From: Asaia krungthepensis NRIC 0535
Lineage (GTDB): Bacteria; Pseudomonadota; Alphaproteobacteria; Acetobacterales; Acetobacteraceae
Assembly: GCF_025995175.1 (NCBI RefSeq)
Contig: NZ_BAPV01000016.1
Coordinates: forward strand, 1 to 34,489
Direction: 5' to 3'
DNA length: 34,489 nt
Below, in pieces: positions 2,711-19,987 of this stretch (the stretch's first letter is position 1; each line of letters opens with the position of its first letter). Below the pieces are notes generated by a model, which did not search any database, was not told the origin of the DNA, and saw nothing but the letters and a program-made list of their open reading frames with translations. A program made the translations under genes and the position numbers.

Positions 2711-2722
2711 ATGTATATACGA
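2711..2722 (-). promoter_or_regulatory. HutC-like operator with -35 element for the TonB receptor gene
   Basis: The 12-mer ATGTATATACGA differs from the perfect palindrome ATGTATATACAT upstream of hutU at two positions. On the minus strand a TTGACC hexamer (2732-2727) precedes it by exactly four bases, the same arrangement as at 7479-7490 and 18491-18502. An operator just downstream of a -35 box would block RNA polymerase when occupied. The -10 element is weak (TTAGCG after 17 bases). Confidence 0.5.
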
Positions 2723-2755: not shown

Positions 2756-4174
2756 TCATTTCACATGTCTCGACATACGGGCTGTCGCAAGATAAATCAC
2801 GGTTGTGACGGCCAGTCCGGCAATCCATGAGAGATCGGCCCCGCCCAGCAAACGCGCCATAGTCCCGGTATAGAGTCCCGTCGATATGAACGGGACTTGT
2901 GCTGCCAACCCTATTGTATAGGCGAGCAGAGCCGGACCGTTATACCGTCCGTACACACCTCCATCGCGTCTGAAAAGCGACGGGAGATCATAGTCTCCAT
3001 GCCGCAGAACGTAATAATCGAGCAGATTGATCGCCGACCACGGCACCATGATCGACATGAGAAGTTCGAGGAAACTCGCATAGGCGGTCTCGAACCGCCC
3101 CGCCATGAAGAGTGCCAGCACGAAGGACAGGGCAAGCAAAACCAGGGTCACCGCTCCACGCCACCCTTTGCCGAAACGATGCGTCGGGGCGAGGGTATGG
3201 AGCACGGTGATGGAGGAAAGCGCTCCACAATAAAGCGTCATGGCGTTCGCCACGACCAGTCCCAGCGACAGCACGCCCAGAATGGGAGCAGCCGCAGAAC
3301 CGAGGCACTGGATCAGGCGGTCATTGACAGCCGGTCCGGCGAGAGCGCCCACGACCATCGCGACCAGTGAGCCCAGCACACAGCCCCAGTATGTCGCGTG
3401 AAAGGCCTGTTTTTCACCTGTCCGCGTCCGCGGCAGATAACGCGAATAATCCGAAACATAGGGTGCATAGGCAATCTGCCAGAGTGCGGCGATGGACATG
3501 GCTCCCAGAAAGCCGGAAACCGTGTCATGCCCCCCGGTTGTCAGCGCTATGCCCGGGGCAGAGGGCGCGAATAATACGGCACCCAGACAAAGCATGATCG
3601 CCCCCCCACAGAGCAGGGCAATGTAATGGGTTAGGCGATGAATGGCGCGATAACCCAGAACGGCAGGGACGGCTGAAATGACAGCAATGGCGATCATGCC
3701 CGGTGTACCCCCCAGAAAAGGGAGCATCATGGCAAGCCCCTGCGCGCCCAGAACCAGATTCGACGCAGCAAAACCGAGAAACATCAGCACGATCAGTGCC
3801 GTCATGGGGGCTGCCCCGATCATGCCGAACTGGGCGCGGGACTGGATCATCTGCGGAATACCGAGGTGAGGCCCCTGCGCCGCGTGAAGCGCCATGAACA
3901 CTCCGCCCACGACATTGCCTATAAGCGCTGCCAGCAAGGCCATCAGGGGGGTCAGATGGAACTCTCCCCGCATGACCCCGCCCGTTGCGACGGCCAGCAT
4001 GGTCATGTTGGCGCCAAACCACAGGCCGAACAGGTCCGATGGCTTGCCATGACGTCTTGACGACGCAATCGGATAGATCGTTTCGAATTCGACTTCGGTC
4101 ATGCTGCCGTCATCCGGCTGAGCATGCTCCGCGGATATTGATGTGGAGTTCCGATCGAGAGGGGGATGCTTCAT
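2756..4174 (-). CDS. NCS1-family (purine/cytosine permease-like) transporter
   Basis: A 472-residue integral membrane protein with about twelve hydrophobic segments and the NCS1 hallmark region near its start (FGLWFGANMTMLAVATGG). NCS1 permeases import nucleobases, hydantoins and related heterocycles with cations. As I remember it, a permease of this family serves urocanate uptake in Pseudomonas hut loci, so urocanate or another imidazole is a plausible substrate here. The start is placed at the second of two adjacent ATGs (4174): the AGGAG there is seven bases away but only four from the first ATG (4177). A longer reading frame upstream overlaps the ABC ATPase gene and is not credible. It is the last gene of the PhyH-ABC operon, four bases after the ATPase stop codon. 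Confidence 0.85.
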   Translation of the reverse strand: MKHPPLDRNSTSISAEHAQPDDGSMTEVEFETIYPIASSRRHGKPSDLFGLWFGANMTMLAVATGGVMRGEFHLTPLMALLAALIGNVVGGVFMALHAAQGPHLGIPQMIQSRAQFGMIGAAPMTALIVLMFLGFAASNLVLGAQGLAMMLPFLGGTPGMIAIAVISAVPAVLGYRAIHRLTHYIALLCGGAIMLCLGAVLFAPSAPGIALTTGGHDTVSGFLGAMSIAALWQIAYAPYVSDYSRYLPRTRTGEKQAFHATYWGCVLGSLVAMVVGALAGPAVNDRLIQCLGSAAAPILGVLSLGLVVANAMTLYCGALSSITVLHTLAPTHRFGKGWRGAVTLVLLALSFVLALFMAGRFETAYASFLELLMSIMVPWSAINLLDYYVLRHGDYDLPSLFRRDGGVYGRYNGPALLAYTIGLAAQVPFISTGLYTGTMARLLGGADLSWIAGLAVTTVIYLATARMSRHVK

Positions 4175-4178
4175 CATG

Positions 4179-4955
4179 TTACTCCTGCCCGGCAAGGTCG
4201 GACACGGCCTCCAGAAAAACGCGCATCGACAGAGGGGCTTGCGACCCGAGCATTTGGCCGGCCGGTCCGCTTGCGGCAATACGGCCTTCAGCGCAGAAAT
4301 GGACGGTCGAGGCGATGCTGCGCACCAGGCGCATGTCATGGCTGACCACGATCATGGTCAATCCATCGCGTGAGAGGTCGCGCATCACGCTCTCGACCTC
4401 ACGCACCAGCGCCGGGTCGAGAGCGCTTGTCGGCTCATCGAAAAGAATCAGGGCAGGCGACATGGCCAGGGCTCGGGCAATCGCCACGCGCTGTTTCTGC
4501 CCCCCCGAAAGACGATCGGGGTAATGCTGCGCAAAGCCCAGCATTCCCACCCGGTCGAGATGGGCACTGGCCATCATGCGTGCTTCTTCCCTTGGGCGCC
4601 CCTGAACCACGCAGGGCCCCTCCATCACATTTTCGAGCACAGTACGATGCGAGAACAGGTTGAAATGCTGGAAGACCATGGGCATGCGGGCCCGCGCCGC
4701 CTGCAATTGGCGCCTGGGGGATATCTGGAAAAGATTGCCGTCCTCGGAACAGAGTCGCTCGCCCCCGAATGTGATCTCGCCACGATCCGGCGTTTCGAGG
4801 AAATTCAGACAACGCAGAATGGTTGATTTTCCCGCCCCGCTCGGACCGATGAGACAGGCAATTTCACCCTCCTCAACAACGAGGTCCACCCCATCGAGTA
4901 CCGCCCTGCCCCCATAACTCTTGCCAAGCTGTCTGACCGTCAGGACAGGATTCAT
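4179..4955 (-). CDS. Polar amino acid ABC transporter, ATP-binding subunit
   Basis: A 258-residue ATPase of the HisP/GlnQ/ArtP group. It has Walker A GPSGAGKST (37-45), a Q-loop near 96, the signature LSGGQ (149-153), Walker B LILFDEP (169-175) and the switch-region VVSHDM. It would power import of an amino acid or analogue with the permease and binding protein encoded just upstream. Its ATG overlaps the permease stop codon by four bases, indicating translational coupling. In a HutC-controlled operon, histidine or a histidine derivative is the natural candidate substrate, but family membership alone does not fix this. Confidence 0.93.
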   Translation of the reverse strand: MNPVLTVRQLGKSYGGRAVLDGVDLVVEEGEIACLIGPSGAGKSTILRCLNFLETPDRGEITFGGERLCSEDGNLFQISPRRQLQAARARMPMVFQHFNLFSHRTVLENVMEGPCVVQGRPREEARMMASAHLDRVGMLGFAQHYPDRLSGGQKQRVAIARALAMSPALILFDEPTSALDPALVREVESVMRDLSRDGLTMIVVSHDMRLVRSIASTVHFCAEGRIAASGPAGQMLGSQAPLSMRVFLEAVSDLAGQE

Positions 4956-5668: not shown

Positions 5669-5676
5669 GGAACCAG

Positions 5677-7437: not shown

Positions 7438-7478
7438 CACAGCATGATCTCCTGACACAATCTGACAGTGAGCCTATG

Positions 7479-7490
7479 TTGTCTGTACAA
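7479..7490 (-). promoter_or_regulatory. HutC-like operator and -35 of the PhyH-ABC-NCS1 operon
   Basis: TTGTCTGTACAA is a near-palindrome with half-sites TTGT/ACAA. On the minus strand TTGACC (7500-7495) lies four bases before it and ATAGGC seventeen bases after the -35, matching the layout at 2711-2732 and 18481-18502. Its centre is about 121 bp from the centre of the operator at 7600-7611, so the divergent region 7438-7631 carries two sites. Confidence 0.55.
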
Positions 7491-7570
7491 GAGAGGTCAA
7501 TTGATTTCCGTAATGAAGAAGCAGAAAATCGAGATGAAGATTGTGTATAAGACGCCATAAATCTTCACGC

Positions 7571-7611
7571 TTGCATGATCCGGGTCGATATCGTTAATCT
7601 TGTCTATACAA
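7571..7611 (+). promoter_or_regulatory. Promoter and HutC-like operator of the hisC-like operon
   Basis: TTGCAT (7571-7576) and TTAATC (7594-7599) are separated by 17 bases and resemble a sigma-70 promoter. TTGTCTATACAA (7600-7611), an 11-of-12 palindrome of the HutC type, follows immediately and would cover the transcription start. Because the predicted start of transcription is near 7606, an upstream in-frame ATG at 7575 would not be in the message. This supports the GTG at 7632 as the translation start. Confidence 0.5.
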
Positions 7612-7631
7612 CCATAAACTGGATATCGGAC

Positions 7632-8783
7632 GTGCATTCTTCCCCCGGAACCCCGTCATCCGTCTCATGCTGCCGACCCGAAATCGCGGCCCTGCCAGCC
7701 TATAACGCTGGTCTCGCCTCAGACGCGGTCAAGGAACGATACGGTCTCGATTCTATCGCAAAACTTGGCAGCAATGAAAATCCCCATGGGGCCCCGCCTC
7801 AGGTGCGCGAGGCCCTAGCCGGCCTTTTCGACAAGCTGGCCCTTTATCCCGAAGCAGAACCGAGACTGCGCGCGCGTCTTGCCACCTATCTGGATGAGCC
7901 TATGCAGACGCTCATCCTGGGAAATGGCTCGGAACAGCTCATACGCATGATCATGCAGGCGGTAATCTCCCCTGGCGACAGGGTGGTGACCGTTCTGCCC
8001 TCGTTCGGACTGCATATCCTGAACGCGGTGGCGATGGGAGGGGTCGTCGATGCCGTGCCGGTCACCGAGACTTGCGAATTCGATCTCGAGGCCCTTTGCG
8101 CAGCGGTATCCCGACCAACGCGTATCCTCATCCTTTCCAATCCATCCAATCCTGTGGGCTGCATGATGACAGAGGCCCAGCTGGAAACACTGATTTCCGC
8201 CTGCCCCCCTGACTGTCTGATCGTGATCGACGAGGCTTATCGGGAATATGCGGCCCGCACCGCGCATTACCCGGATGCGCGCCGCGTCCTGCGCCGCCAA
8301 TCCCGCCCCTGGATCGTGCTCGGAACGTTTTCCAAGGCATGGGGACTGGCGGGGTTGCGCATTGGCTGGGCCCTGAGTGACACCCCCGCCCTGATCGCCG
8401 CGCTTGAGGCCGTTCGCGACCCGTTCAATACCAATATCGTCGCACAACTCGCTGCCCTCGCTGCCTTGGAGGGAGAGAGCCATATGCGCGAGAGCGTGGC
8501 GGCCACGGTCAGGGCTCGGAATGTCCTCAAAGCCGGGATCGAGGCCATGGGCCTGGACGTCGCTCCCTCGAGCGGTAACTTCCTGTTTGTCAGACTACCC
8601 TGCCCTGCCGCACCGGTTGCGGAGGCGCTGCTCCGTCACGGTGTGATCGTCAAACCCTGGAAGGAACCCGGGTTCACGGACAGGATACGCGTCTCCATCG
8701 GCCTCGATGAGGAAAACATGCGTTTCACCCAGGCACTGCGTGCCATTCTTGCCGAGCCCCCTGCCCTTGAGGAACTGCCCTGA
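7632..8783 (+). CDS. HisC-like class I/II aminotransferase (hut-associated)
   Basis: A PLP-dependent aminotransferase of fold type I, closest by eye to histidinol-phosphate aminotransferase: LGSNENPHG near the N-terminus, NPSNPVG, DEAYREY, and FSKAWGLAGLRIGW with K235 as the PLP lysine. HisC enzymes also transaminate aromatic amino acids and histidine. An ATG at 7575 would give 402 residues, but the stretch to 7632 contains the promoter and operator, so a GTG at 7632 (383 residues, near the usual HisC length) is preferred; its ribosome site is weak. The next gene begins one base after its stop codon and encodes a D-2-hydroxyacid dehydrogenase. In that setting the likely role is interconversion of histidine and imidazolepyruvate rather than histidine biosynthesis. 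That role is inferred. Confidence 0.85.
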   Translation: MHSSPGTPSSVSCCRPEIAALPAYNAGLASDAVKERYGLDSIAKLGSNENPHGAPPQVREALAGLFDKLALYPEAEPRLRARLATYLDEPMQTLILGNGSEQLIRMIMQAVISPGDRVVTVLPSFGLHILNAVAMGGVVDAVPVTETCEFDLEALCAAVSRPTRILILSNPSNPVGCMMTEAQLETLISACPPDCLIVIDEAYREYAARTAHYPDARRVLRRQSRPWIVLGTFSKAWGLAGLRIGWALSDTPALIAALEAVRDPFNTNIVAQLAALAALEGESHMRESVAATVRARNVLKAGIEAMGLDVAPSSGNFLFVRLPCPAAPVAEALLRHGVIVKPWKEPGFTDRIRVSIGLDEENMRFTQALRAILAEPPALEELP

Positions 8784-8784
8784 A

Positions 8785-10182
8785 ATGAGACCCTCTGCGT
8801 CAGACCGTATCCGACTTGTCGCCGAACTCGACACCCTGTTTCCCGGACGGGTCTCGCGCAGTCCCTCCCTGCTGGAACAGCACAGCCACGGCGAAGGCTA
8901 TCACGCCGCCCATGCGCCCGATGCTGTTCTTTATGTCGAAACGACAGAGGAGGTCTCGCAGGCCCTCGCATTCTGCAACGCCCATGACCTGCCCGTTGTG
9001 GCTTTCGGTGGCGGCACATCGCTTGAAGGGCAGCTCAATGCTGTCGAGGGTGGAGTATCGCTCGACCTGTCGCGCATGACGGCAATTATTGCGGTCCACG
9101 AAAATGATCTCGATTGTCGCGTTCAGGCCGGGGTGACCCGTCAGGCCCTGAACCTGCATCTGCGTGATCTGGGACTTTTCTTTCCGGTCGACCCGGGGGG
9201 CGAGGCAACGATAGGCGGTATGTGCGCCACACGCGCCTCGGGGACAGGGGCTGTACGCTATGGTACCATACGCGAAAACGTGCTGGGCCTGACTATCGTG
9301 CTGGCCGATGGACGCATCATGCAGACCGGGGGGCGCGTGCGCAAATCAGCCATGGGCTATGACCTGACCCATCTCATGATCGGTTCGGAGGGAACACTCG
9401 GGATCGTCACCGAAATACAGCTCCGCCTGCAGGGAATACCTGAGACCACGGCCGCGGCCATCTGCCAGTTCGACACCCTCGCGGGGTGTGTCGAGACTGC
9501 AGTGCAGGTCATGCAGATGGGCCTGCCGGTTGCACGCATGGAACTGCTCGACGACGTGCAGATGCAGGCTTGCATCGACTACTCGAAGCTCGACTCCTAT
9601 CGCCCCGTGCCCACCATGTTTTTCGAGGTTTCCGGCGGCCCGCAGGCCGTGGCGGAGCAGATCGGCACGATCGAGGCCCTGAGTGTGGATAACGGGGGAG
9701 CTTCCTTCGCCTGGAGTACGCGCGATGATGAGCGCGCCGCACTCTGGAAGGCCCGTCATGCCGTCTACTGGGCCTGTCTCGCCTTTCGTCCCGGCTATGT
9801 CGGCATTTCCACAGATGCCATCGTGCCCATATCCGCCCTGACCGAGATGATTCTGGGCGCTAAGAGCGATATCGAGGCATCGGGCATTACCGCGCCTATC
9901 GTCGGCCATATCGGCGATGGTAATTTTCACACGGTCATGCTCGTGCCACCGGGGGAAGACGCTTTGGCGCGCGCCCATGATCTCGATGCCAGACTGATCG
10001 CCCGCGCCCTTTCTCTGGGCGGGTCTGCAAGCGGTGAGCACGGGGTGGGACTGGCCAAACGTGACTACCTCCCGCAGGAACACGACCCGGTTTCGATCGA
10101 CGTGATGCGCAGTATCAAGGCCACGCTCGATCCGAAAAACATCCTCAACCCCGGCAAGATCTTTCCCGCAGCACGACCATGA
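8785..10182 (+). CDS. FAD-linked D-2-hydroxyacid dehydrogenase (GlcD/Dld type)
   Basis: A 465-residue flavoprotein of the vanillyl-alcohol-oxidase superfamily. Its FAD domain shows GGGTSLEGQ, RASGTGAVRYGTIRENV and GSEGTLGIVTE. Its C-terminal substrate domain shows VGHIGDGNFH, SGEHGVG and NPGKIF, the pattern of D-lactate dehydrogenase (cytochrome), GlcD and D-2-hydroxyglutarate dehydrogenase. The ATG at 8785 follows the aminotransferase stop codon by one base, with GAGGAA about ten bases upstream; a longer N-terminus would overlap that gene. The stop overlaps the hutD start (ATGA). D-lactate, glycolate or D-2-hydroxyglutarate are possible substrates, but the aminotransferase neighbour and HutC-like operator make D-imidazolelactate the most interesting candidate. 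Confidence 0.88.
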   Translation: MRPSASDRIRLVAELDTLFPGRVSRSPSLLEQHSHGEGYHAAHAPDAVLYVETTEEVSQALAFCNAHDLPVVAFGGGTSLEGQLNAVEGGVSLDLSRMTAIIAVHENDLDCRVQAGVTRQALNLHLRDLGLFFPVDPGGEATIGGMCATRASGTGAVRYGTIRENVLGLTIVLADGRIMQTGGRVRKSAMGYDLTHLMIGSEGTLGIVTEIQLRLQGIPETTAAAICQFDTLAGCVETAVQVMQMGLPVARMELLDDVQMQACIDYSKLDSYRPVPTMFFEVSGGPQAVAEQIGTIEALSVDNGGASFAWSTRDDERAALWKARHAVYWACLAFRPGYVGISTDAIVPISALTEMILGAKSDIEASGITAPIVGHIGDGNFHTVMLVPPGEDALARAHDLDARLIARALSLGGSASGEHGVGLAKRDYLPQEHDPVSIDVMRSIKATLDPKNILNPGKIFPAARP

Positions 10183-10751
10183 TCGCGCCCCACGACCTCA
10201 CCACCTTCCCGGAGACGGACTGGAAGAACGGTCAGGGTCGTACCCGCGAACTGGCTCGGGGTGATACACAGAGCGGGACATGGCGGGTCAGTCTTGCCTC
10301 GATCGAGGGGGATGGTCCGTTCTCTTCCTTCCCGGGCCTCGTGCGCCATCTTGCCCTTGCCTCGCCCGGCCATCTGATCCTGAGCACCGCGGGCGACTGC
10401 CCTCATCATCTCGACCGTGCCGGCGCCATTCTGAGCTTCGACGGCAGCATGACCGTGACAGCGGCCTGCCCCTCGGGCCCGGTCATGGCATTCAATCTGA
10501 TGGCCTCGCACGGACAGCCTGCCCTTCTGCACGCCCATGAGACGCCTTTCACACTGCCCCATACCCTGCATTTCACCCTGCTTCCCCTGAGAGGCCCATG
10601 GCATGTCGCCGGACACGGACCGGCATTCGGCCCGGGCAGCGTCCTCCAGGGGAAGAGTGCCGCAGGCGATACGCCCCTGAACATTTCCCCGATGGCACCG
10701 TCCGGGCCACAGGCCCCGCTCTGTCTCGCCGCCTTGATCCCTTCTCCCTGA
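10179..10751 (+). CDS. hutD: HutD family protein
   Basis: A 190-residue protein with the HutD pattern at its N-terminus (WKNGQGRTRELA, then WRVSLASIEGDGPFSSFPG). HutD is a cupin-like protein common in hut loci. It is not an enzyme of the pathway; in Pseudomonas it has been proposed to set an upper limit on hut expression, perhaps by binding formylglutamate or urocanate. The start ATG overlaps the stop codon of the D-hydroxyacid dehydrogenase gene, so the two are translationally coupled. Finding hutD in this operon, away from hutUH, ties the aminotransferase and dehydrogenase to histidine catabolism. Confidence 0.85.
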   Translation: MIAPHDLTTFPETDWKNGQGRTRELARGDTQSGTWRVSLASIEGDGPFSSFPGLVRHLALASPGHLILSTAGDCPHHLDRAGAILSFDGSMTVTAACPSGPVMAFNLMASHGQPALLHAHETPFTLPHTLHFTLLPLRGPWHVAGHGPAFGPGSVLQGKSAAGDTPLNISPMAPSGPQAPLCLAALIPSP

Positions 10752-10775
10752 CCCTCAATCCGCCGGAGCCTTTTC

Positions 10776-11726
10776 ATGAACGATCTCAGCTATCTTCCTG
10801 TCATCGATCTCGCCCCGGCCCGTGCCGGTAATCTTGAGGCGACAGGACGCGCCATCAATGCCGCCTTTTCACAATCGGGTTTCTGCTACGTGCGAAACCA
10901 CGGCATTCCGGAAAGCCTGCTTGAGGGGATCCATCGCGAGGCACTCGATTTTTTCCATGCTCCGATGGAAGAAAAACTTCTTTGCAAGCCCCATCAGGCT
11001 GTAAGGGGTTTCAACGCGCTCAACCGCACCACCATGTATGGCGCGGCCAATCCGGATTATAAGGAGTTCTTCCAGATCGGGCTCGATCTGCCGCCGGATC
11101 ATCCCCTTGTCCTCGCGGGCCAGCCCTTGCGCGGCCCCAATCTCTGGCCCGAGGGGCGGCCAGGTTTCCGCACCGCCATGGAGGCCTATTTCGAGGCCGT
11201 AGGCGTATGCGGGCAAATACTTCTGCGCGCTGTCGCCTGTTCGCTCGGGATCTCGCCCGATTTCTTTGTCACGCGCTATGCCAGACCGTTGCAGCGCAGT
11301 CAGGCCATCTGGTATCCGCCCCACCCGCCGGAACGCGAGGCAGATCAGTTCGGGGTGGCTCCTCATACGGATTATGGCTGCATTACCCTGCTCTGGCAGG
11401 ATGACACCGGAGGGCTGGATGTGCAGGGGCCTGATGGTACCTGGATTCCCGCGCCGCCCATTCCGGGAACGCTCGTCATCAATATCGGCGACCTTCTGTG
11501 CCGGTGGTCGAACCGGCGCTATGTCTCGAACATGCATCGCGTCACCAACCGGTCCGGACGCGAGCGTGTTTCTTTCGCAACGTTCTACGACCCGGATTAC
11601 GACGCCCGGATCGATCCGCACGATCTGAACCTGCCAGCCGGTACAGACGCCCTCTATATGCCCGTCTCCGCCGGGGATTACATCATGGAACGCATACGCG
11701 ATTCACAAAAGCCCAGGCAGGGCTGA
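10776..11726 (+). CDS. Isopenicillin-N-synthase-like Fe(II)/2OG oxygenase
   Basis: A 316-residue protein of the 2OG-Fe(II) oxygenase superfamily, IPNS-like branch: N-terminal DIOX_N segment (LPVIDLAPA, FCYVRNHGIP) and catalytic jelly roll with HTD (H197, D199), the distal His in NMHRV (H254) and R264-x-S266 for the 2-oxoglutarate carboxylate. All metal ligands are present. It is the fourth gene of the aminotransferase operon, 24 bases after hutD, and ends four bases from the convergent LldD-like gene. It is unrelated in subfamily to the PhyH-type dioxygenase at 6631-7437, so the locus has two distinct oxygenases. The substrate is unknown; oxidation of a histidine derivative is inferred from the neighbours only. 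Confidence 0.88.
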   Translation: MNDLSYLPVIDLAPARAGNLEATGRAINAAFSQSGFCYVRNHGIPESLLEGIHREALDFFHAPMEEKLLCKPHQAVRGFNALNRTTMYGAANPDYKEFFQIGLDLPPDHPLVLAGQPLRGPNLWPEGRPGFRTAMEAYFEAVGVCGQILLRAVACSLGISPDFFVTRYARPLQRSQAIWYPPHPPEREADQFGVAPHTDYGCITLLWQDDTGGLDVQGPDGTWIPAPPIPGTLVINIGDLLCRWSNRRYVSNMHRVTNRSGRERVSFATFYDPDYDARIDPHDLNLPAGTDALYMPVSAGDYIMERIRDSQKPRQG

Positions 11727-11730
11727 ACCC

Positions 11731-12891
11731 TTATCCGTCAGAGTGAAGCACAGTCCGGCCTGCCTCGCGCAGCGCCTGGATCGTGCACAGCCCGGTAAGC
11801 GCCATGCAATCCGCCGTCTCACGGATCAACCGGTGCAGGGCGGTCTCTACATTTTTCGTTCCGCCCGCAGCCAGGGCCCAGGCCCAGGGGCGGCCCAGCG
11901 AAACGGCCCGCGCGCCCAGCGCAAGGGCCGTGACGACGTCACCGCCATGACGCACCCCGCCATCCACCACAACATCGAGCCGATCCTGCGTGGCGTCCAG
12001 TATGTCGGGCAGCATGGTGAGAGGCGACGGTGAAGGGTCCAGCTGTCGGCCACCGTGATTGGACAGGATCAGCCCGTCCACGCCACAGGAAACCGCCTGC
12101 CGGGCATCATCGGGATGGAGCACGCCCTTGAGAACGAGGCGGCCTTTCCAGCATGCCCTCAGCATCTCCAGATCGGCCCATGACAGGGTGGGATCGATCC
12201 GGGATGCAATGTCACGGGCCTGCCCCATGATACCGCGCGCTCCAGTATAACGCCCCATCGTCCCCAGATCGTTGCGTCTTGCCCGCAACCGGTCGAGAAG
12301 CCAGGCCGGGTGCCGGGCCAGACCCATGCTCTGGCCGAGACTGGGGCGCACACGGTCACGAAACCCGTTCCGGATGTCGCGCGGGCGCAGGGGTGTGATA
12401 GCGGTATCGATGGTCAGAACAAGCGTCCCGACCCCGCTCGCTGCGGCCCGGTCGAGCATATCCTGCGTCACGCCACGGTCACGCAGGATATAAAGCTGGG
12501 CCATGAGAGGCGCTTTTACTGCCGCCACCTCCTCCAGAGCATGGATGGAAAAGCTCGAAAGCGCCGAAGCAATCCCGCATCGTTCCGCCGCCCGCGCCGC
12601 GCCGATCTCGCCATCGCTATGAAACAGCCCGGCAAACCCGACCGGCGAGAGCAGGACAGGCGCCTTCAGAGCCATGCCGAAACAGGTAGTCTGCTGGTCG
12701 ATACAGGATACATCGCGCAACCCGCGAGGCAGGAGCGACCAGCGCGTGAAAGCGGCGCGGTTGGCGAGAATTGTCTTCTCACCATGGGCGCCGCCATCGA
12801 GATAATCCGCAAACAGGCGAGGCAGGCGACGGCGTGCCCGTGCCGCCTCGATCGTGAAAGCGCCGTCATCCGGCGCGATCACCCCCCTCAT
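11731..12891 (-). CDS. FMN-dependent L-2-hydroxyacid dehydrogenase (LldD family)
   Basis: A 386-residue alpha-hydroxyacid dehydrogenase/oxidase. Catalytic features are intact: Y30 in [11 protein letters not shown]134 in AQLY, TID (160-162), K255, and H279/R282 in [10 protein letters not shown]. Members oxidise L-lactate, glycolate, L-mandelate and similar acids with FMN. The ATG overlaps the hutH stop codon (ATGA), so it is translationally coupled to hutH and belongs to the hutUH operon. This placement suggests imidazole-L-lactate, oxidised to imidazolepyruvate, as the physiological substrate, mirroring the D-specific enzyme in the opposing operon. The loop after the TID motif ([14 protein letters not shown]) differs from the usual lactate-enzyme pattern as I remember it, which may reflect different specificity. 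The family is certain; the substrate is inferred. Confidence 0.9.
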
Positions 12892-14435
12892 GCGGCGTCG
12901 AGCGTGGGGAGCTTCAGCGATTGGCTCGCCGCATGGACAAGCGCCCCTGAGGCAATAAGAGCATTGGCAGCCTCCATATCAGGCGTGAAGAGCCGGTCCT
13001 GTGCGAAAAACGGCACGGTCTCGCGCAGCAGGGCCGCCGCCGCGACCAGCGGCGCGGAGGAACGCAGCGGGGCCAGGAAATCGAGCCCCTGCACGGCCGA
13101 AAGATATTCGATGCCAAGAATGGTGCGTACATTCTCGTTGATATCGCCAACACGGCGCGCCGCGAATGTCGCCATCGACACGTGGTCTTCCTGATTGGCC
13201 GAGGTAGGCAGGCTGTCCACGCTTGCCGGGTGGGCAAGCGTCTTGTTTTCAGAAGCAAGGGCCGCTGCCGTGACCTGGGCAATCATGAAGCCGGAATTGA
13301 CGCCACTGTCATTGACCAGAAAGGGCGGTAATCCGCTCATGCCAGGATCGACCAGCAGGGCAAGACGACGCTCCGCAATCGCCCCGATTTCCGATACGGC
13401 AATCGCCATCAGATCGGCCGCGATGGCTACAGGTTCGGCATGGAAATTACCCCCGGAGATCATTTCGTCCGTATCGGGGAAATGGATGGGGTTGTCCGAC
13501 ACGGCATTGGCCTCGATCAGCAGGACGTGAGCCGCATGGCGCAATGAGTCCAGCGCAGCCCCCATGACCTGGGGCTGGCAGCGCAGGCAATAGGGATCCT
13601 GCACGCGCTCATCGTCGATCTCATGTGACGCGCGTATGGCAGAGCCGGCCATGAGCGCCCGATAAATGGCAGCACATTCGATCTGGCCCTTCTGGCCGCG
13701 CAGGGCATGAAGCCTCGGATCGAAGGGAGCATCCGTCCCCCGTGCGGCATCGAGGGTCAGCGCGCCGGTCACAAGCGCGGTCTGGTGAAGGGTTTCCGCT
13801 TCGAAAAGAGCGATAAGAGCCAGAGCCGTCGAGGTTTGCGTGCCATTGAGAAGGGCAAGCCCCTCTTTCGGCCCGAGTTCGACAGGCCTCAGCCCGGCAC
13901 GCTCCAGAGCCACGGCGCCCGGCAGACGCTCACCGGCGAAGAAGGCCTCCCCCTCGCCGATGACAACCGCCGACATATGAGCAAGAGGCGCGAGGTCGCC
14001 CGATGCCCCGACCGATCCTTTTTCCGGGATCACGGGAATGACCCCGCGATTGAGCATGTCGAGCAGCAGGCGGACGATCTCGTACCGCACTCCCGAATAG
14101 CCTCTCGCCAGCCCATTGGCCTTCAGCAGCAGAATGAGTCGCACGACCGGCTCGGCCAGAGGCTTGCCGATTCCCGCGGCATGGCTGAGCACAAGGTTGC
14201 GTTGCAGATCACGCAGCTTTTCATCGGGGATGCGTGTCTTGGCCAGCTTGCCGAAGCCGGTATTCACGCCATAGACGGCCGCACCGCCCGCCACGATGCG
14301 GTCGACCGAGCGCGCGGCCTCGCGCAGGCGCGGTTCGGTGCCTGGCTCGAGCAGGATTTCAGGCTGGTCGAGAATGAAGCTGCGCAGGGACGCCAGATCG
14401 AGAGCGCCGGGAATGAGAGTGAAAACAGGCTTCAT
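12888..14435 (-). CDS. hutH: Histidine ammonia-lyase (histidase)
   Basis: A 515-residue cytoplasmic enzyme that converts L-histidine to trans-urocanate and ammonia, the first step of the hut pathway. The MIO cofactor triad A144-S145-G146 sits in [11 protein letters not shown], and the conserved Tyr and loop appear in [13 protein letters not shown] (residues 53-65). [10 protein letters not shown] and NEDHVSM-like (NQEDHVSMA) motifs are also present. Length is normal. It starts six bases after the hutU stop codon and overlaps the LldD-type gene by four bases, forming hutU-hutH-lldD. Expression is probably driven from the operator region upstream of hutU. Confidence 0.97.
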
Positions 14436-14441
14436 GATGGA

Positions 14442-16133
14442 TCAGGCTCCGTCGATCATGGGCAGGGTGAGACCCTGTTCCCGGGCGCAGTCTTTAGCGA
14501 TATCGTAGCCCGCATCGGCATGGCGCATGACACCGGTCGCGGGGTCATTCCACAACACACGTTCCAGACGGCTTGCGGCCTCCGCCGTGCCATCGGCGAC
14601 GATGACCATGCCCGCATGCTGTGAGAAACCCATTCCCACGCCGCCGCCATGATGCAGCGACACCCAGGTGGCGCCAGAAGCCGTGTTGAGCAGGGCATTG
14701 AGCAGGGGCCAGTCGGAAACGGCATCCGACCCATCCTGCATGGCCTCGGTCTCGCGGTTCGGGCTGGCCACTGAGCCGCTGTCGAGATGGTCCCGACCGA
14801 TCACAACAGGGGCCTTGAGCTCGCCGCTTGCGACCATCTCGTTGAAGGCAAGACCGAGCCGGTGGCGGTCGCCGAGCCCAACCCAGCAGATGCGTGCGGG
14901 CAGGCCCTGGAACTGGATCTTCTCGCGCGCCATGTCGAGCCAGTTGTGCAGATGCGTGTCATGCGGGAGCAGTTCCCTGACCTTTGCATCGGTCTTGTAG
15001 ATATCCTCGGGATCGCCAGAGAGAGCAGCCCAGCGAAAAGGCCCGACGCCGCGGCAGAAGAGCGGCCGTATATAGGCCGGAACAAAACCCGGGAAAGCGA
15101 ACGCTTCCTCGCATCCAACCTCGAAGGCCATCTGCCGGATATTATTCCCGTAATCGAAGGTCGGGACGCCCATACGGTGAAATGCCACCATGGCCTCTAC
15201 CTGAAGACGCATCGAGTCCTTGGCGGCCCGCTCTACGGCAGCGGGATCTGTCACGCGCTTATGAGCCGCCTGATCGAGCGTCCACCCTGCGGGCAGATAA
15301 CCGTTCAGCGGATCATGGGCCGATGTCTGATCGGTCACGGCATCGGGCCGGACGCCGCGACGCAGGAGCTCGGGAAAAATCTCAGCAGCATTGCCCAGCA
15401 GCCCCACCGAAATCGGCGCATCGGCCTTGCAGGCTGCATCGATCCATTCGAGCGCCTCATCGAGCGAGTCCGTCTTGCGGTCGAGATAGCCCGTCTCAAG
15501 GCGCTTCTCGATACGGCTCGGCTCACATTCGACCGCCAGCATCGACGCACCTGCCATGACCGCGGCGAGGGGCTGTGCACCGCTCATGCCGCCCAGACCA
15601 CCCGTCAGGATCCAGCGGCCGCGCAACGACCCCCCATAGGATTGCCGCCCCATTTCGACAAAGGTCTCGTATGTCCCCTGCACGATGCCCTGACTGCCGA
15701 TATAGATCCACGACCCTGCGGTCATCTGGCCGTACATCATCAATCCGGCCCGATCGAGTTCGTTGAACCGGTCCCAGTTTGCCCAGTGCGGCACCAGATT
15801 GGAATTGGCAATCAGAACACGCGGCGCGTTGGGGTGGGTGCGGAACACACCAACCGGCTTGCCCGACTGGACGAGCAGCGTCTGATCGGCGTCCAGATCG
15901 GTCAGGGCAGAGACAATCCTGTCATAGCAGGCCCAGTTGCGGGCCGCCCGACCGATGCCGCCATAAACCACCAGCTCAGAGGGCTTTTCGGCCACATCGG
16001 GATCGAGATTATTCATCAGCATGCGCAGCGCCGCCTCGGTCTGCCACGACCGCGCTGTCAGCTCCGGCCCGTGGGCCGCGCGAATAACCCTGTCATTGGC
16101 CAGCCTGGCTGGCGAAGAATCCTGGGCGCTCAT
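14442..16133 (-). CDS. hutU: Urocanate hydratase (urocanase)
   Basis: A 563-residue NAD-dependent enzyme converting urocanate to 4-imidazolone-5-propionate. Visible motifs are YGQMTAGSW, the NAD-binding [11 protein letters not shown], the catalytic Cys region ([15 protein letters not shown]), and [17 protein letters not shown]. The start chosen is the ATG at 16133, five bases after AGGAG; a TTG further upstream at 16169 would read through the operator palindrome. It is the first gene of hutU-hutH-lldD. A perfect 16-bp palindrome lies 17 bases before the start. Confidence 0.97.
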
Positions 16134-16150
16134 GACATCTCCTGACCCGA

Positions 16151-16166
16151 ACATGTATATACATGT
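16151..16166 (-). promoter_or_regulatory. Perfect 16-bp HutC-type operator before hutU
   Basis: ACATGTATATACATGT is its own reverse complement over all 16 bases. Two TTGACA hexamers occur on the minus strand, at 16179-16174 and 16169-16164; the latter overlaps the palindrome, so a bound dimer would occlude the promoter. GntR/HutC repressors bind TGTA-N2-TACA-like sites released by urocanate. It is the best copy of the motif shared by six sites in this window. Confidence 0.75.
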
Positions 16167-16377: not shown

Positions 16378-17103
16378 TCAGGGCCGATAACGCCCGACAA
16401 AGCTGTAGCGACTTCCGGGATAGGTGAAGATGCCTTTCATCACCACACGCTCGTCCACCCAGGTGCGACGCATGAGTTGGAGGCAGGCTTCAGGGGCGTC
16501 AAGGTCGAGCAGATCGCAGGTTTCCTGGCTGGGCGTGACAGCAAAGACGACATGCTCGATTTCCTCAGGGTGGGAAATCGAGGAGAGATGCCGGTGGGGG
16601 TGCGACAGGCTGAAATCCTGCTCCAGATAATCGGGGGCAAAATGGGGCGAGACGAAGCGTTCCTCAACCTGAAGCGGCGTCCCATCTTCGAGATGAACGA
16701 TGATCGAATGAAAAAGTCGCGCGCCGGGGCGCTGGCCAAATGCCATGGCGAGATCGCTGTCGGCCCGGATCGCATCCAGGGTGATGACACGCGTCGTATG
16801 GGTATGACCGTTCGACACGATATCTTCGGCAATGTCGCGCAATTCGAGCAGTTCGACACGCTTGAGCGGCTCGGCCACAAAAGTGCCTACACCCTGTGCC
16901 CGTGTGACCACGCCATCAACGGTCAGTTCGCGCAGGGCACGATGGACCGTCATGCGTGACACACCCAGAAGATCGACGAGTTCACTCTCGGAAGGAAGCC
17001 TGTGCCCCACCTCCCACTCCCCCGTCTCGATACGGGAGAGGATATATGATTTGACCTGCTCGTAACGTGCGGCCGGCTTGTCCTTGCCCAGCAATATGGT
17101 CAC
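16378..17103 (-). CDS. hutC: HutC, GntR-family histidine utilisation repressor
   Basis: A 241-residue regulator with an N-terminal winged helix (residues about 10-78: ARYEQVKSYILSRI, LPSESELVDLLGVSRMTVHR, GVGTFVAE) and a C-terminal UTRA ligand domain (about 95-238, ending SRYSFVGRYRP). HutC represses hut operons and is released by urocanate. The start is a GTG at 17103 with AGGGG about ten bases upstream; no ATG is in frame nearby. It lies between hutI and hutU with its own operator-like site at 17134-17145, so autoregulation is likely. Palindromes of one type at six sites make this the obvious regulator of the whole locus. Confidence 0.93.
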   Translation of the reverse strand: MTILLGKDKPAARYEQVKSYILSRIETGEWEVGHRLPSESELVDLLGVSRMTVHRALRELTVDGVVTRAQGVGTFVAEPLKRVELLELRDIAEDIVSNGHTHTTRVITLDAIRADSDLAMAFGQRPGARLFHSIIVHLEDGTPLQVEERFVSPHFAPDYLEQDFSLSHPHRHLSSISHPEEIEHVVFAVTPSQETCDLLDLDAPEACLQLMRRTWVDERVVMKGIFTYPGSRYSFVGRYRP

Positions 17104-17213: not shown

Positions 17214-18458
17214 TCAGAGAGCCTGATCCGGGACGCCCGCAAAGACACGCCCCACAGGCACCACCCCGCCAATCCAGTAGGCGAGCTCGTGAGGGGCGGT
17301 AATATCCCAGAGCGCCATGTCGGCTGCCATTCCGGGCGCCAGCATACCGCAGGTTTCCGAGAGTCCGAGCGCGGCGGCCGCGTGACGCGTATGGCCTTCC
17401 AGCGCTTCGCGCGGTGTCAGCCGGAACAGGGTACAGGCCATGTTCATCACGGCCGTGGGGGAGAGCAGAGGCGAGGTGCCAGGATTGCAATCCGTCGCGA
17501 GCGCCATACGCACGCCATGCTTGCGAAAAGCCTCGACGGGAGGCAGTTTTTCCTCGCGGACGAAATAAAATGCCCCCGGCAGGAGAACCGCCACCGTGCC
17601 CTGTGCCGCCATGGCCCTGACACCCTCCTCATGGGCATATTCCACATGGTCGGCAGAGAGAGCCCCGAGCCGGGCCGCAAGCATGGCACCGCCCAGATCT
17701 GAAAGCTGATCGGCATGAAGGCGCAGTGTGAAACCGCAATCCCGCGCCACGATGAACAGACGCTCGATCTCGTGAGGCTGAAACGCAATGCCTTCGCAGA
17801 AGCCATCTACGCTGTCGGCCAGTCCCTCGGCTGCAATTCGAGGCAGGAGGTCGGCACAAAGATGATCCACATAGGCGTCACGACGCCCCTCAAATTCAGG
17901 CGGCAAGGCATGAGCGCCGAGAAAGCTCACATGCACGCGCAGCCTCAGTTCGGAACCCAGACGACGCGCCACACGCAACTGTTTGAGTTCGTCCTCGAGC
18001 GTCAGTCCATAGCCGGATTTGATCTCCAGAGTCGTCACGCCATTCGCCATGAGCCGTCTGGCTCGTTTCTCGGAAAGCGCGAAAAGTTCGTCCTCGCTTG
18101 CAGCCCTGGTGGCTCTCACAGTGGAGAGTATTCCCCCGCCGCGTCGGGCGATCTCCTGATAGGATACGCCGCTGAGACGCTCGGAGAATTCCCCGCTTCT
18201 GTCGCCGGCGTAAACAAGATGAGTATGTGGATCGATCAGCCCCGGTGTCATCCATGCTCCCCGGCAATCGATCACCTCCTGCGCCAGGGTTTCGGGTGCG
18301 CCGGGGAGCTCTCGACATAATCCTGTCCAGGCAATCCGGCCCTGTTCGACCGCAATCGCCCCATCGCGCAGCACGCCGGATTCTGTCTCGCTATCGTGAT
18401 GACCTGCATGGGGCGCAAGCGTTGCAAGATGGGCGTTGATCCAGAGCCTGTCCCACAT
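17214..18458 (-). CDS. hutI: Imidazolonepropionase
   Basis: A 414-residue amidohydrolase-superfamily enzyme that opens the imidazolone ring to N-formimino-L-glutamate. Metal and substrate motifs are present: [40 protein letters not shown] in [10 protein letters not shown], and [10 protein letters not shown]. Length is typical. An AGGAG sits ten bases before the ATG. Its promoter region faces hutF across a shared operator: on the minus strand TTGCGC (18530-18525) and TAGACA (18507-18502) are separated by 17 bases. hutC follows after 110 bases. Confidence 0.97.
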
Positions 18459-18502: not shown

Positions 18503-18607
18503 GTCTAGTTATGAGAGCGTGAACGCGCAACGGTAATCGCAACACATTCCTCGCCGGAGCTCTTGGTTCCGGATCAATCCCCCTGTTTTCATCCTGCGGA
18601 GTTCCGG

Positions 18608-19987
18608 ATGTCCGAAATGTCGTCTCCTCGCGCGGTTTTTGCCAGGCAGGCTTTCCTGCCCGGTGGCTGGCGTCATGACGTGCGTCTGCAATGGGAGGGA
18701 GGGCATTTCGTTCAGATCGACGCCCATGAAACACCCCGTGCGGGCGATCGGGTCGTCGACATTGCGGTGCCACCACTGGCCAGCCTGCATTCTCATGCCT
18801 TTCAGCGCGCCATGGCGGGACTGGCGGAGACACGCCGCGATCCTGCCGACTCCTTCTGGACCTGGCGCAAGCAGATGTATGCGCTTGCCTCGCGCATCAC
18901 GCCGGACGATATGCGTGTCATTGCGGCCCAGCTCTATCTCGAAATGCTGAAGGCCGGTTTTTCCCAGGTGGGCGAATTCCATTACCTGCATCGCGGGCCC
19001 GATGGAAACGCCTATAACGACAAGGCGGAGATGGCCCTCGCTGTCGTTCAGGCCGCACAGGATACGGGCATTGGCGTGACCATATTGCCGACGCTCTACC
19101 GCCACGCGGGGTTCGGCAAGGCGCTGGCACCCGAGCAGGCACGTTTCGCAAGTTCACCTGAGTTTATCGCAACCATTCTCGAGACCATCGAGACACGGCA
19201 CAAGGGCAATCCCCTCATCAAGGCGGGGCTCGGGCTGCATTCGCTGCGCGCCGTCGACAGGGAGAGTTTGGGCCGCATGCTGGGAATGATCGGCAAGGAC
19301 ATGCCGATCCACATCCATGTCGCTGAACAGCAGAAGGAAGTTGCCGACTGCCTCGATTATCTGGGCAGACGTCCTGTGGCATGGCTCCTCGACGAGGCGC
19401 CGGTCGACCGGCGCTGGTGCCTGGTTCATGCCACCCATCTGGATCAGGATGAAACCCGCCGTCTTGCGGCCTCCGGAGCGGTCGCCGGGTTATGCCCCAT
19501 CACGGAAGCCAATCTGGGCGACGGGCTGTTCCCGTTGGAAGCCTATATCACCCAGGGCGGGCGTTTCGGTATCGGAACGGACAGCAATATCCTGCCCTCG
19601 GTATCCGAAGAGCTGCGCCTTCTCGAGTACGGTCGCCGTCTTGTGAGCCGGAAACGCTGCTGTGCCCTGCCGGGCGACACGCTGGGATCGGTCGGGCGTT
19701 ATCTCTACGAAGCGGCTCTCAAGGGCGGGGCACAGGCCTGCCAGCAAAATGGCGGCAGACTTGCCCCTGGCATGAGAGCCGATCTCTGCATTCTCGACGC
19801 CGAAGCCTTGGCCCTGCCCGGTCTCCAGCAGGACGCGATTTTCGATGGCGCACTCTTCGCCCGCCCGAGCCTGCCCGTGCAACATATGCTGGTCGCGGGA
19901 GAATGGGTCATCGAAGGCGGCCGCCATGGCCAGGAGAAGACTATAGCGGATGCTTTCAGGCGTGTGGTGACGAAGCTGCATCATTGA
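18608..19987 (+). CDS. hutF: Formimidoylglutamate deiminase
   Basis: A 459-residue amidohydrolase converting N-formimino-L-glutamate to N-formyl-L-glutamate and ammonia. Motifs: LHSHAFQRAMAGLAE with the metal HxH, FWTWR, GEFHYLH, HIHVAEQ, HATHLD and FGIGTDSNI with the conserved Asp. The ATG at 18608 has GGAG six bases upstream and gives the usual family length; a TTG at 18563 is less likely. hutG follows after 44 bases. The hutF/hutG pair defines the five-step, formylglutamate branch of histidine degradation rather than direct formamide release. Confidence 0.96.
   Translation: MSEMSSPRAVFARQAFLPGGWRHDVRLQWEGGHFVQIDAHETPRAGDRVVDIAVPPLASLHSHAFQRAMAGLAETRRDPADSFWTWRKQMYALASRITPDDMRVIAAQLYLEMLKAGFSQVGEFHYLHRGPDGNAYNDKAEMALAVVQAAQDTGIGVTILPTLYRHAGFGKALAPEQARFASSPEFIATILETIETRHKGNPLIKAGLGLHSLRAVDRESLGRMLGMIGKDMPIHIHVAEQQKEVADCLDYLGRRPVAWLLDEAPVDRRWCLVHATHLDQDETRRLAASGAVAGLCPITEANLGDGLFPLEAYITQGGRFGIGTDSNILPSVSEELRLLEYGRRLVSRKRCCALPGDTLGSVGRYLYEAALKGGAQACQQNGGRLAPGMRADLCILDAEALALPGLQQDAIFDGALFARPSLPVQHMLVAGEWVIEGGRHGQEKTIADAFRRVVTKLHH

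What the first reader, a model, noticed from the sequence alone, without database searches (positions are those of the whole stretch)
7571..14435. D- and L-2-hydroxyacid dehydrogenases plus a HisC-like aminotransferase built into a hut locus: candidate imidazolelactate utilisation system
Two unrelated dehydrogenases of opposite expected stereochemistry (GlcD/Dld type at 8785-10182, LldD type at 11731-12891) and a HisC-like aminotransferase (7632-8783) are tied to hut genes by overlaps: lldD-type start with hutH stop, and GlcD-type stop with hutD start. The simplest reading is oxidation of D- and L-imidazolelactate to imidazolepyruvate, transamination to histidine, then HutHUIFG. Breakdown of imidazolyl-L-lactate through histidine has been described for Pseudomonas testosteroni (from memory); a compact two-stereoisomer gene set under HutC control would, to my knowledge, be new.
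Basis: partly seen in the sequence, partly recalled or inferred. Interest (0 to 1): 0.82.

Follow-up and report, generated by a model that had tools for sequence, protein, structure and literature searches.

The report
Histidine locus with imidazolelactate salvage genes
An acetic acid bacterium (Asaia) carries, wired into its histidine-degradation genes, enzymes that by gene context most likely turn both mirror forms of imidazolelactate back into histidine so that it can be eaten; this would give candidate genes to a route described long ago as biochemistry, but no enzyme has been tested.

Summary
A HisC-like aminotransferase (AT), an LDHD-type FAD D-2-hydroxyacid dehydrogenase (not GlcD) and an FMN L-2-hydroxyacid dehydrogenase are built into a complete hut locus, with 4-base overlaps. 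The block recurs in the six relatives found with this LldD, with HutC-like operators at the same promoters. The genome has separate lactate enzymes and another HisC-like protein.

Beyond the family, relatives of this AT lie beside one of three kinds of 2-hydroxyacid dehydrogenase (LDHD; a GlcD-like cousin; the unrelated LldD), often inside hut loci. In rhizobia and Rhodobacterales the pair goes with a VanAB-type Rieske oxygenase. AT-linked LDHDs share a pocket serine (15 of 15) absent from 28 of 28 others, in two separate branches.

Best reading: imidazolelactate -> imidazolepyruvate -> histidine -> Hut, inferred from context (0.6). The oxygenases probably feed in modified, perhaps N-methylated, imidazole acids. 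A new variant of a known kind.

The parts
156..2600 (-). TonB-dependent receptor (TonB1)
   Evidence: PF00593/PF07715; 76-99% identical at the same place in 6 of 6 relatives
2711..2722 (.). HutC-like operator upstream of TonB1 (2 mismatches)
   Evidence: site at the same place in 3 of 6 relatives
2756..4339 (-). NCS1-type permease (longest frame; true start probably further in)
   Evidence: PF02133; same place in 5 of 6 relatives
4179..4955 (-). ABC transporter ATPase, amino-acid type
   Evidence: PF00005
4952..5668 (-). ABC transporter permease
   Evidence: PF00528
5677..6630 (-). solute-binding protein, family 3 (amino-acid type)
   Evidence: PF00497
6631..7458 (-). PhyH-type Fe(II)/2OG oxygenase
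   Evidence: PF05721; nearest solved relative MysH; HxD...H and Arg residues invariant in 13 aligned rows
7479..7490 (.). HutC-like operator in PhyH/AT divergent promoter (2 mismatches)
   Evidence: at least one site at this promoter in 6 of 6 relatives
7600..7611 (.). HutC-like operator upstream of AT (1 mismatch)
7632..8783 (+). HisC-like aminotransferase, proposed imidazolepyruvate aminotransferase (GTG start)
   Evidence: PF00155; just below TIGR01141 and below NF003496 cut-offs; tree
8785..10182 (+). LDHD-type FAD D-2-hydroxyacid dehydrogenase, proposed D-imidazolelactate dehydrogenase
   Evidence: PF02913/PF01565; pdb 8jdc; metal- and carboxylate-binding residues kept; pocket Ser342 shared by AT-linked LDHDs
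10179..10751 (+). HutD
   Evidence: PF05962
10776..11726 (+). IPNS-type Fe(II)/2OG oxygenase
   Evidence: PF14226/PF03171; HxD...H...RxS invariant in 13 aligned rows
11731..12891 (-). LldD-type FMN L-2-hydroxyacid dehydrogenase, proposed L-imidazolelactate dehydrogenase
   Evidence: PF01070; below LldD model cut-offs; catalytic Tyr/Asp/Arg/Lys/His/Arg kept
12888..14435 (-). HutH histidine ammonia-lyase
   Evidence: TIGR01225 695 bits, cut-off 539
14442..16133 (-). HutU urocanate hydratase (ATG 16133)
   Evidence: TIGR01228; start
16153..16164 (.). HutC-like operator upstream of hutU-hutH-lldD (2 mismatches)
   Evidence: site at hutU in 6 of 6 relatives
16378..17103 (-). HutC repressor
   Evidence: TIGR02018 264 bits, cut-off 220
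17214..18458 (-). HutI imidazolonepropionase
   Evidence: amidohydrolase; orthologue at the same place in 6 of 6 relatives
18563..19987 (+). HutF formimidoylglutamate deiminase
   Evidence: PF22429
19984..20841 (+). HutG N-formylglutamate deformylase
   Evidence: PF05013 found in frame 19492-20841

Best explanation
The block is an enlarged hut regulon that salvages 2-hydroxy analogues of histidine. Imidazole acids enter through TonB1 and the ABC or NCS1 transporter. D-imidazolelactate is oxidised by the LDHD-type flavoenzyme and L-imidazolelactate by the LldD-type flavoenzyme, both to imidazolepyruvate. The HisC-like aminotransferase makes L-histidine from it, and HutH-U-I-F-G degrade it. HutC represses the PhyH/ABC, AT-DLD-hutD-IPNSox and hutU-hutH-lldD units together. 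The two 2OG oxygenases probably feed modified imidazole acids into the same pool. Shown: genes, overlaps, operator-like sites, conservation, recurrent linkage. Inferred: every substrate, transport, the direction of the aminotransferase, HutC binding, and the role of the oxygenases.
For: Genes and overlaps. Block conserved in 6 of 6 other relatives found with this LldD (7 of 147 genomes searched, own included). HutC-like operators, 4 found against 0.14 expected, at the AT/PhyH and hutU promoters in the window and in 6 of 6 relatives. Separate paralogues for lactate: canonical LldD (577.4 bits, cut-off 550) beside a TPP enzyme, and E. coli-type Dld; another HisC-like protein (269.8 bits, cut-off 276.55). 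AT search in 319 Pseudomonadota: 14 loci in 12 other genomes; 7 of 14 have a hut catabolic gene and 10 of 14 a 2-hydroxyacid dehydrogenase homologue in the fetched stretch. Three kinds of dehydrogenase pair with this AT: LDHD and a GlcD-like type (subfamilies of one FAD superfamily, 31-35% identical), and the unrelated FMN-type LldD, as hutH-hutU-AT-LldD on plasmids. ATs of the window, 6 relatives, Klebsiella, G346, G222, G335, G388, Caballeronia and G191, all near hut genes, group together (84/84, moderate), away from the genome's other HisC-like protein. LDHDs linked to such ATs carry Ser at window position 342 (a side-chain pocket position) in 15 of 15, the 28 control LDHDs in 0 of 28, and the 15 fall in two separate places of the LDHD tree.
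Against: No substrate was tested. Mouse LDHD also has this Ser and does not act on hydrophilic side chains, so Ser342 does not spell imidazole; it was picked out after the fact from six pocket and channel positions, and the other positions differ among AT-linked LDHDs. LDHD-type enzymes are common (75 of 190 genomes, own included). Related ATs also sit with VanAB-type Rieske oxygenases and no hut genes in the stretch (4 of 14 loci) or with HisD-like genes, so the AT family is not confined to imidazolepyruvate. The gene set is sporadic (7 of 147 relatives for LldD; 13 of 319 Pseudomonadota for AT; own included in both). The reading does not by itself explain two conserved 2OG oxygenases.
Confidence: 0.6

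Rival explanations
1. The true growth substrate is an N-methylated (or otherwise alkylated) imidazole acid. The PhyH and IPNS-type oxygenases remove the alkyl group, as VanAB-type Rieske enzymes would do in the rhizobial and Rhodobacterales modules, and AT plus dehydrogenases handle the keto/hydroxy forms that arise. Imidazolelactate is then one of several entry compounds.
For: Both oxygenases in 6 of 6 relatives. The same kind of AT/dehydrogenase pair goes with VanA homologues: 57-62% identical to P. yeei VanA in rhizobia, Gemmobacter (operon copy) and G130, and 83-89% in five other Rhodobacterales plasmids. Formaldehyde-dehydrogenase (FrmA) genes lie beside the Leisingera and Shinella HZN7 modules and beside the block of one relative, G068. 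Nearest solved PhyH relative is MysH.
Against: Oxygenase reactions unknown. IPNSox at 50% identity or more also occurs without hut genes in the fetched stretch (G287, G882, G762, G780, G784). FrmA was seen in only 1 of the 6 relatives' stretches. PhyH and IPNSox also occur in hut loci without AT or dehydrogenase in the stretch (G364, Azospirillum), so they need not belong to one linear route.
Confidence: 0.21
2. The oxygenases make imidazolelactate: one hydroxylates imidazolepropionate at C2, and DLD/LldD and AT then lead to histidine.
For: PhyH-family enzymes include 2-hydroxylases (recalled); AT, a dehydrogenase and IPNSox lie together in G191, G388 and Caballeronia SBC1.
Against: PhyH sits in a hut operon of G364 and IPNSox in that of Azospirillum with no AT or DLD found in the stretch; direct oxidation of imidazolepropionate to urocanate would be shorter.
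Confidence: 0.08
3. DLD and LldD are ordinary D-/L-lactate (or 2-hydroxyglutarate) dehydrogenases, and the AT is a spare HisC, placed there by chance or for redox supply.
For: LDHD homologues are widespread; most pocket residues are ordinary for bacterial LDHDs; neither HisC-like protein of the genome reaches the TIGR01141 cut-off, so which one serves biosynthesis is open.
Against: Separate canonical LldD and Dld in the genome; hut LldD below lactate-model cut-offs; overlaps, shared operators and recurrence with other kinds of dehydrogenase.
Confidence: 0.06
4. The genes work backwards: AT removes surplus histidine as imidazolepyruvate and the flavoenzymes recycle imidazolelactate leaking from it.
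For: Histidine degradation through an aminotransferase is reported in Candida glabrata (title in a reference list).
Against: HutH in the same regulon already removes histidine; dedicated transporters in the block.
Confidence: 0.05

Closest known systems
Imidazolyl-L-lactate and imidazolylpropionate degradation by Pseudomonas (now Comamonas) testosteroni, Coote & Hassall 1973
   Same: A Comamonadaceae plasmid (L220) has a GlcD-like dehydrogenase in a hut operon, and G335, whose hut locus matches L220 at 80% DNA identity over 66% of the query, also has the AT there.
   Different: Biochemistry in another bacterium; I found no gene assignment in the searches made; the title names only the L form of the lactate; no LDHD + LldD pair was seen in L220 or G335; C. 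testosteroni itself was not examined.
Paracoccus yeei pLM20P5 catabolic plasmid (PMC4447125)
   Same: Complete hut set plus HisC-like AT plus LDHD on one 28-kb plasmid; the authors mark HUT, HIS and LCT modules.
   Different: In the passages read, authors treat histidine and vanillate use as separate traits; it has VanAB and an AspA-like hydrolase, and no 2OG oxygenase or LldD was found.
Plasmid hut operon of Klebsiella, Escherichia and Enterobacter (L204)
   Same: hutH-hutU-AT-LldD in one run with HutC-like operators; AT 49% identical.
   Different: LldD only 39% identical and no closer to hut LldD than to other Asaia paralogues; has an iron-containing alcohol dehydrogenase; no LDHD or 2OG oxygenase in the stretch.
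HutC regulon of Proteobacteria (PMC5343134, passages)
   Same: HutC, hut enzymes, HutD, TonB receptor and COG1457-type transporter as members.
   Different: No AT, 2-hydroxyacid dehydrogenase or oxygenase named for HutC in the text passages (figures not held).
Mammalian LDHD (PMC10589216, passages)
   Same: All five subsite-A residues conserved and Ser365 of subsite B; general D-2-hydroxyacid dehydrogenase with a flexible pocket.
   Different: Mouse enzyme has no activity on hydrophilic side chains; imidazolelactate not mentioned in the passages seen; other subsite-B residues differ.

Membership tests
Canonical hut pathway (five-step, HutHUIFG) | hutH, hutU, hutI, hutF, hutG with HutC | tested here: met
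HutC regulon | HutC-type operators at promoters of the added genes | tested here: met
   sites at 7479, 7600, 16153, 2711; AT/PhyH and hutU promoters in 6 of 6 relatives. Consensus recalled; binding itself not tested
LldD, FMN-dependent L-lactate dehydrogenase | score over curated LldD cut-offs (NF008398, NF033901) | tested here: not met
   318.7 (cut-off 376) and 286.5 (cut-off 550); another paralogue of the genome meets both
FMN 2-hydroxyacid dehydrogenase superfamily | catalytic Tyr, Tyr, Asp, Arg, Lys, His, Arg | tested here: met
   (residue roles and numbers of human HAO1 recalled)
GlcD glycolate oxidase subunit | TIGR00387 cut-off; Tyr at the Ala363 position of LDHD | tested here: not met
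   312.9 (cut-off 567.9); Gly at that position
LDHD-type D-2-hydroxyacid dehydrogenase | Arg347, His398, His405, Glu442, His443 (mouse numbering) | tested here: met
LDHD-type D-2-hydroxyacid dehydrogenase | activity on D-2-hydroxyacids | not testable with these tools
   needs enzyme assay
HisC histidinol-phosphate aminotransferase | score over TIGR01141 / NF003496 cut-offs | tested here: not met
   273.0 (276.55) and 481.3 (540); the other HisC-like protein of the genome also just misses TIGR01141 (269.8), so this is weak
Fe(II)/2OG oxygenases (PhyH; IPNS/DIOX type) | HxD...H iron site and 2OG-binding Arg | tested here: met
   invariant in alignments of 13 rows each; motif roles recalled
Imidazolelactate catabolic route (P. 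testosteroni type) | growth on imidazolelactate through imidazolepyruvate and histidine | not testable with these tools
   needs growth test and assay

The most novel reading that the evidence does not exclude
A broadly scattered, mostly unrecognised salvage system for modified histidine skeletons: one clade of HisC-like aminotransferases serves as imidazolepyruvate aminotransferase, coupled to whichever 2-hydroxyacid dehydrogenase is at hand (LDHD, GlcD-like or LldD) and to interchangeable dealkylating oxygenases (2OG PhyH/IPNS types in acetic acid bacteria, VanAB-type Rieske enzymes in rhizobia and Rhodobacterales), with HutC control where hut genes are at hand. LDHDs recruited to it took on or kept the same pocket serine in two separate branches. 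Asaia then takes up D- and L-imidazolelactate and N-methylated imidazole acids, and the 'vanillate' module of P. yeei pLM20P5 is really a methyl-imidazole demethylase.
Probability: 0.28. Interest if true: 0.78.

Novelty: new variant of a known kind. Interest (0 to 1): 0.62.

Why it matters
Imidazolelactate and imidazole propionate turn up in metabolite studies of blood and gut (search listings), and bacterial use of imidazolyl-L-lactate was published in 1973 (title only). In the library searches made here no listed title or abstract start assigns genes to it; the lists were capped (for example 20 of 241 and 30 of 65 papers), so this is not proof of absence. The locus gives named candidate genes for both stereoisomers. 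It also turns 'histidinol-phosphate transaminase', 'D-lactate dehydrogenase' and 'vanillate demethylase' annotations near hut genes into testable predictions. Asaia is a known symbiont of mosquitoes and flowers (recalled), where lactic acid bacteria may release such 2-hydroxyacids (inference).

Tried and rejected
Rejected: GlcD identity. Mostly rejected as evidence: the LDHD pocket that differs from mouse (Val101Leu, Trp351Tyr, Ala363Gly, Ile407Val). Of the 29 control LDHDs fetched, 28 were aligned (L155 gave no usable frame): Leu80 in 27, Tyr328 in 21, Gly340 in 26, Val384 in 15 of 28, so these are ordinary; Trp329 (a channel residue) in 4 of 28; only Ser342 sets AT-linked LDHDs apart, 15 of 15 against 0 of 28. 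The controls are the best-scoring 29 of the non-own hits, not a random set. Rejected: close kinship of the plasmid LldD with the hut LldD of Asaia (39%, no more than to other paralogues). Weak: PhyH at about 48% is mostly a LysR-linked or otherwise placed family. Of 12 PhyH neighbourhoods fetched (of 33 non-own hits), 5 showed a HutC- or HutH-like gene (G130, G364, G211, G462, G125); of 10 plasmid PhyH neighbourhoods opened (of 23 records), 1 did (B. cenocepacia, HutC-like), four examined by tblastn and six by annotation only. IPNSox at 50% or more outside the family: 4 of 9 loci inspected showed hut genes (G388, G191, Caballeronia SBC1, Azospirillum), 5 did not (G287, G882, G762, G780, G784; G762 lies on an 11-kb contig); Caballeronia SBC2 was not opened there. 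Such IPNSox is rare: 1 of 250 genomes in the order of G388 at E <= 1e-85. AT relatives without a dehydrogenase found nearby: S. meliloti pSymA, Shinella WSD5-1, A. vitis, 4 of 14 genome loci (G446, G263:C22, G413:C12, G253), and the more distant ATs (33-37%) beside IPNSox in G910, G815 and G821. Literature: ten searches used; the 1973 paper is not held. No structure prediction was run: the orthologues at hand came from sources that the tool says it does not take, and window plus the two named Asaia loci alone would be too shallow.

Full report
1. What is there. The window is a whole 34,489-base contig (G000:C16). The named loci with 94% identical LldD are from Asaia lannensis and A. bogorensis, so the host is an Asaia or very near it. 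Reading left to right: a minus-strand run TonB1, NCS1 permease, ABC ATPase, ABC permease, solute-binding protein and a PhyH-type 2OG oxygenase (156-7458); a plus-strand run AT, LDHD-type dehydrogenase (DLD), HutD and an IPNS-type 2OG oxygenase (7632-11726); a minus-strand run LldD, HutH, HutU, then HutC and HutI (11731-18458); and plus-strand HutF and HutG (18563-20841). DLD/HutD and HutH/LldD overlap by 4 bases.

2. Conservation. LldD at E <= 1e-90 was found in 7 of 147 relatives searched, own genome included. In all 6 others the gene order from TonB1 to HutG is the same; G008 lacks NCS1 at that place and has a 54% homologue elsewhere on the stretch. Outside the two close Asaia genomes (4 of the 6) identities fall to 57-66% for LldD, 59-65% for AT and 36-45% for HutD, and stay at 74-79% for DLD, PhyH and IPNSox. 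Both oxygenases are present in 6 of 6. How many of the other 140 relatives have a hut locus without this block was not examined.

3. Regulation. The pattern TTGTATATACAA (recalled HutC-type consensus) with up to 2 mismatches has 4 matches in the window against 0.14 expected, and 0 of 100 shuffles reach 4. They lie upstream of TonB1 (2711), on both sides of the PhyH/AT divergent promoter (7479, 7600) and upstream of HutU (16153). In the relatives, at least one site lies in the PhyH/AT gap or at the 5' edge of the AT frame in 6 of 6, one at the start of hutU in 6 of 6, and one before TonB1 in 3 of 6 (with coordinates). The 7600 site argues for GTG 7632 as the AT start.

4. Paralogues. The genome has a canonical LldD on C4 (577.4 bits, cut-off 550) next to a TPP enzyme, an E. 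coli-type Dld (PF09330, 419.7 bits), a 1017-residue frame with DLD-like pieces that by size could be a YdiJ-type enzyme (not tested), and a HisC-like protein on C60 (269.8 bits, cut-off 276.55). The hut LldD falls below both lactate models. So lactate oxidation does not need the hut copies. For histidine biosynthesis the argument is weaker, as neither HisC-like protein passes the model.

5. Recurrence outside the family. A search of 319 Pseudomonadota with the AT gave 14 loci in 12 other genomes at E <= 1e-65. All 14 neighbourhoods were read (11 fetched, three already held). Seven have a hut catabolic gene in the stretch: G346, G222, G335, G388, G191, G130 and, about 8.5 kb off, G446. Two have only a HutC homologue (G263:C22, G413:C12); four have a VanAB-type Rieske pair plus a GlcD-like dehydrogenase (G413:C2, G211, G263:C14, G192); one has neither (G253). 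Ten of 14 have a 2-hydroxyacid dehydrogenase homologue. In G335 the run is HutG, HutF, AT, GlcD-like, HutI, HutD, HutU, HutH, HutC. Caballeronia SBC1 has HutH, HutC, ABC transporter, IPNSox, GlcD-like, AT. The Klebsiella plasmid pKPN-0c4e has hutH, hutU, AT, LldD, Fe-ADH, with operators before hutH and before the ABC genes. A near-identical AT-LldD-FeADH stretch has a match in 77 of 72,556 plasmid records (63 of them over at least 80% of the query) and in 28 of 5,426 E. coli genomes (22 over at least 80%), on plasmids only. P. yeei pLM20P5 has the whole hut set with VanAB, AspA, LDHD and AT. Of 15 plasmid AT neighbourhoods opened (of 147 records and 74), 12 have a dehydrogenase nearby and 3 do not.

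6. Trees. ATs of the window, the 6 relatives, Klebsiella, G346, G222, G335, G388, Caballeronia and G191, all near hut genes, form one group (84/84, moderate, not starred), while G130 and P. yeei lie with Rhodobacterales ATs and the rhizobial VanAB-linked ATs form a third group. This one AT group is paired with LDHD plus LldD (Acetobacteraceae), a GlcD-like enzyme (six loci) and LldD alone (plasmids). LDHD and the GlcD-like enzyme are subfamilies of one FAD superfamily; LldD is unrelated to them. The exchange of dehydrogenases beside one AT is the strongest argument that the step before the aminotransferase is oxidation of a 2-hydroxy acid.

7. What the residues say. DLD keeps the five residues that bind metal and glycolate in mouse LDHD (PMC10589216, passages; alignment). 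Most side-chain pocket differences from the mouse enzyme are shared by ordinary bacterial LDHDs. One position is not: window Ser342 (mouse Ser365, subsite B) is Ser in 15 of 15 LDHDs linked to such an AT (7 Acetobacteraceae, G130, G211, 6 Rhodobacterales) and Ala, Pro or Thr in 28 of 28 controls. In the LDHD tree the Acetobacteraceae lie among the controls (98/98 with the control L149) and the other eight linked ones apart; at least two changes are forced by well-supported branches. So the serine came or stayed twice with the linkage, which hints at a shared substrate class. It does not name imidazole: mouse LDHD has the same Ser and is reported inactive on hydrophilic side chains, and the position was noticed after the fact. 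LldD keeps the catalytic set and has Phe where HAO1 has Trp110, which is not diagnostic.

8. The oxygenases. Both keep iron- and 2OG-binding residues. The nearest solved PhyH relative is MysH; the nearest solved IPNSox relatives are 9ovh, named ethylene/succinate-forming enzyme, and 6jyv, a probable iron/ascorbate oxidoreductase. PhyH sits between hutU and hutD of G364 without AT in the stretch, and IPNSox in the Azospirillum hut locus without AT. So the oxygenases may act independently of the AT step. The VanAB-type enzymes that accompany related AT-dehydrogenase pairs, with FrmA beside Leisingera, Shinella HZN7 and G068, point to methyl removal as a common companion reaction. That is inference.

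9. Literature. Searches were the ten allowed. In the capped lists no title or abstract start assigns genes to imidazolelactate use. Coote & Hassall 1973 was seen only as a title in reference lists. P. testosteroni is now Comamonas testosteroni, Comamonadaceae. A Comamonadaceae plasmid, L220, carries a hut operon ending in a GlcD-like dehydrogenase 70% identical to that of G335, so the family of the classical organism has at least this element in a hut operon; C. testosteroni itself was not examined.

10. Verdict. The imidazolelactate reading is the best one but rests on context and one residue pattern (0.6). The conserved oxygenases mean that the substrate range is probably wider. Interest 0.62.

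Noticed in passing
L204 (Klebsiella pneumoniae pKPN-0c4e) 334-15371: Enterobacterales plasmids carry a full hut operon with HisC-like AT, LldD-type oxidase and an iron-containing alcohol dehydrogenase; the last could be an NAD-linked dehydrogenase for a further hydroxy compound.
   Followed up: partly
L214 (P. yeei pLM20P5) 12515-21113: AspA-like hydrolase, VanAB-type Rieske pair, LDHD and AT lie together beside hut; similar sets, with no hut catabolic gene in the stretch, in Paracoccus, Leisingera, Mameliella and Pseudohalocynthiibacter. The published vanillate reading deserves a test with methylated imidazoles.
   Followed up: partly
L206 1302-10089, L207 585-10116: S. meliloti pSymA and Shinella: HisD-like, SDR-type and zinc alcohol dehydrogenase genes, polyamine-type ABC and the AT, with HutC annotated in Shinella and a HutC-like operator in both; may be a histidinol-type catabolic set.
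   Followed up: no
window 21091-31507: A second block: TonB2, S13 D-Ala-D-Ala carboxypeptidase, LysR, beta-lactamase-fold protein (PF00144), DAO-type FAD oxidoreductase and penicillin-amidase-family protein.
   Followed up: no
L081 and L129 (G130): One genome combines PhyH, a VanA-type and a ring-hydroxylating-type Rieske oxygenase, AspA-like hydrolase, LDHD, AT, HutC and hut genes within about 30 kb.
   Followed up: partly
L199-L202 (G413, G211, G263, G192): Conserved module VanA-VanB-AT-GlcD-like-ABC transporter without hut genes in the stretch, in four genomes of one unnamed genus.
   Followed up: no
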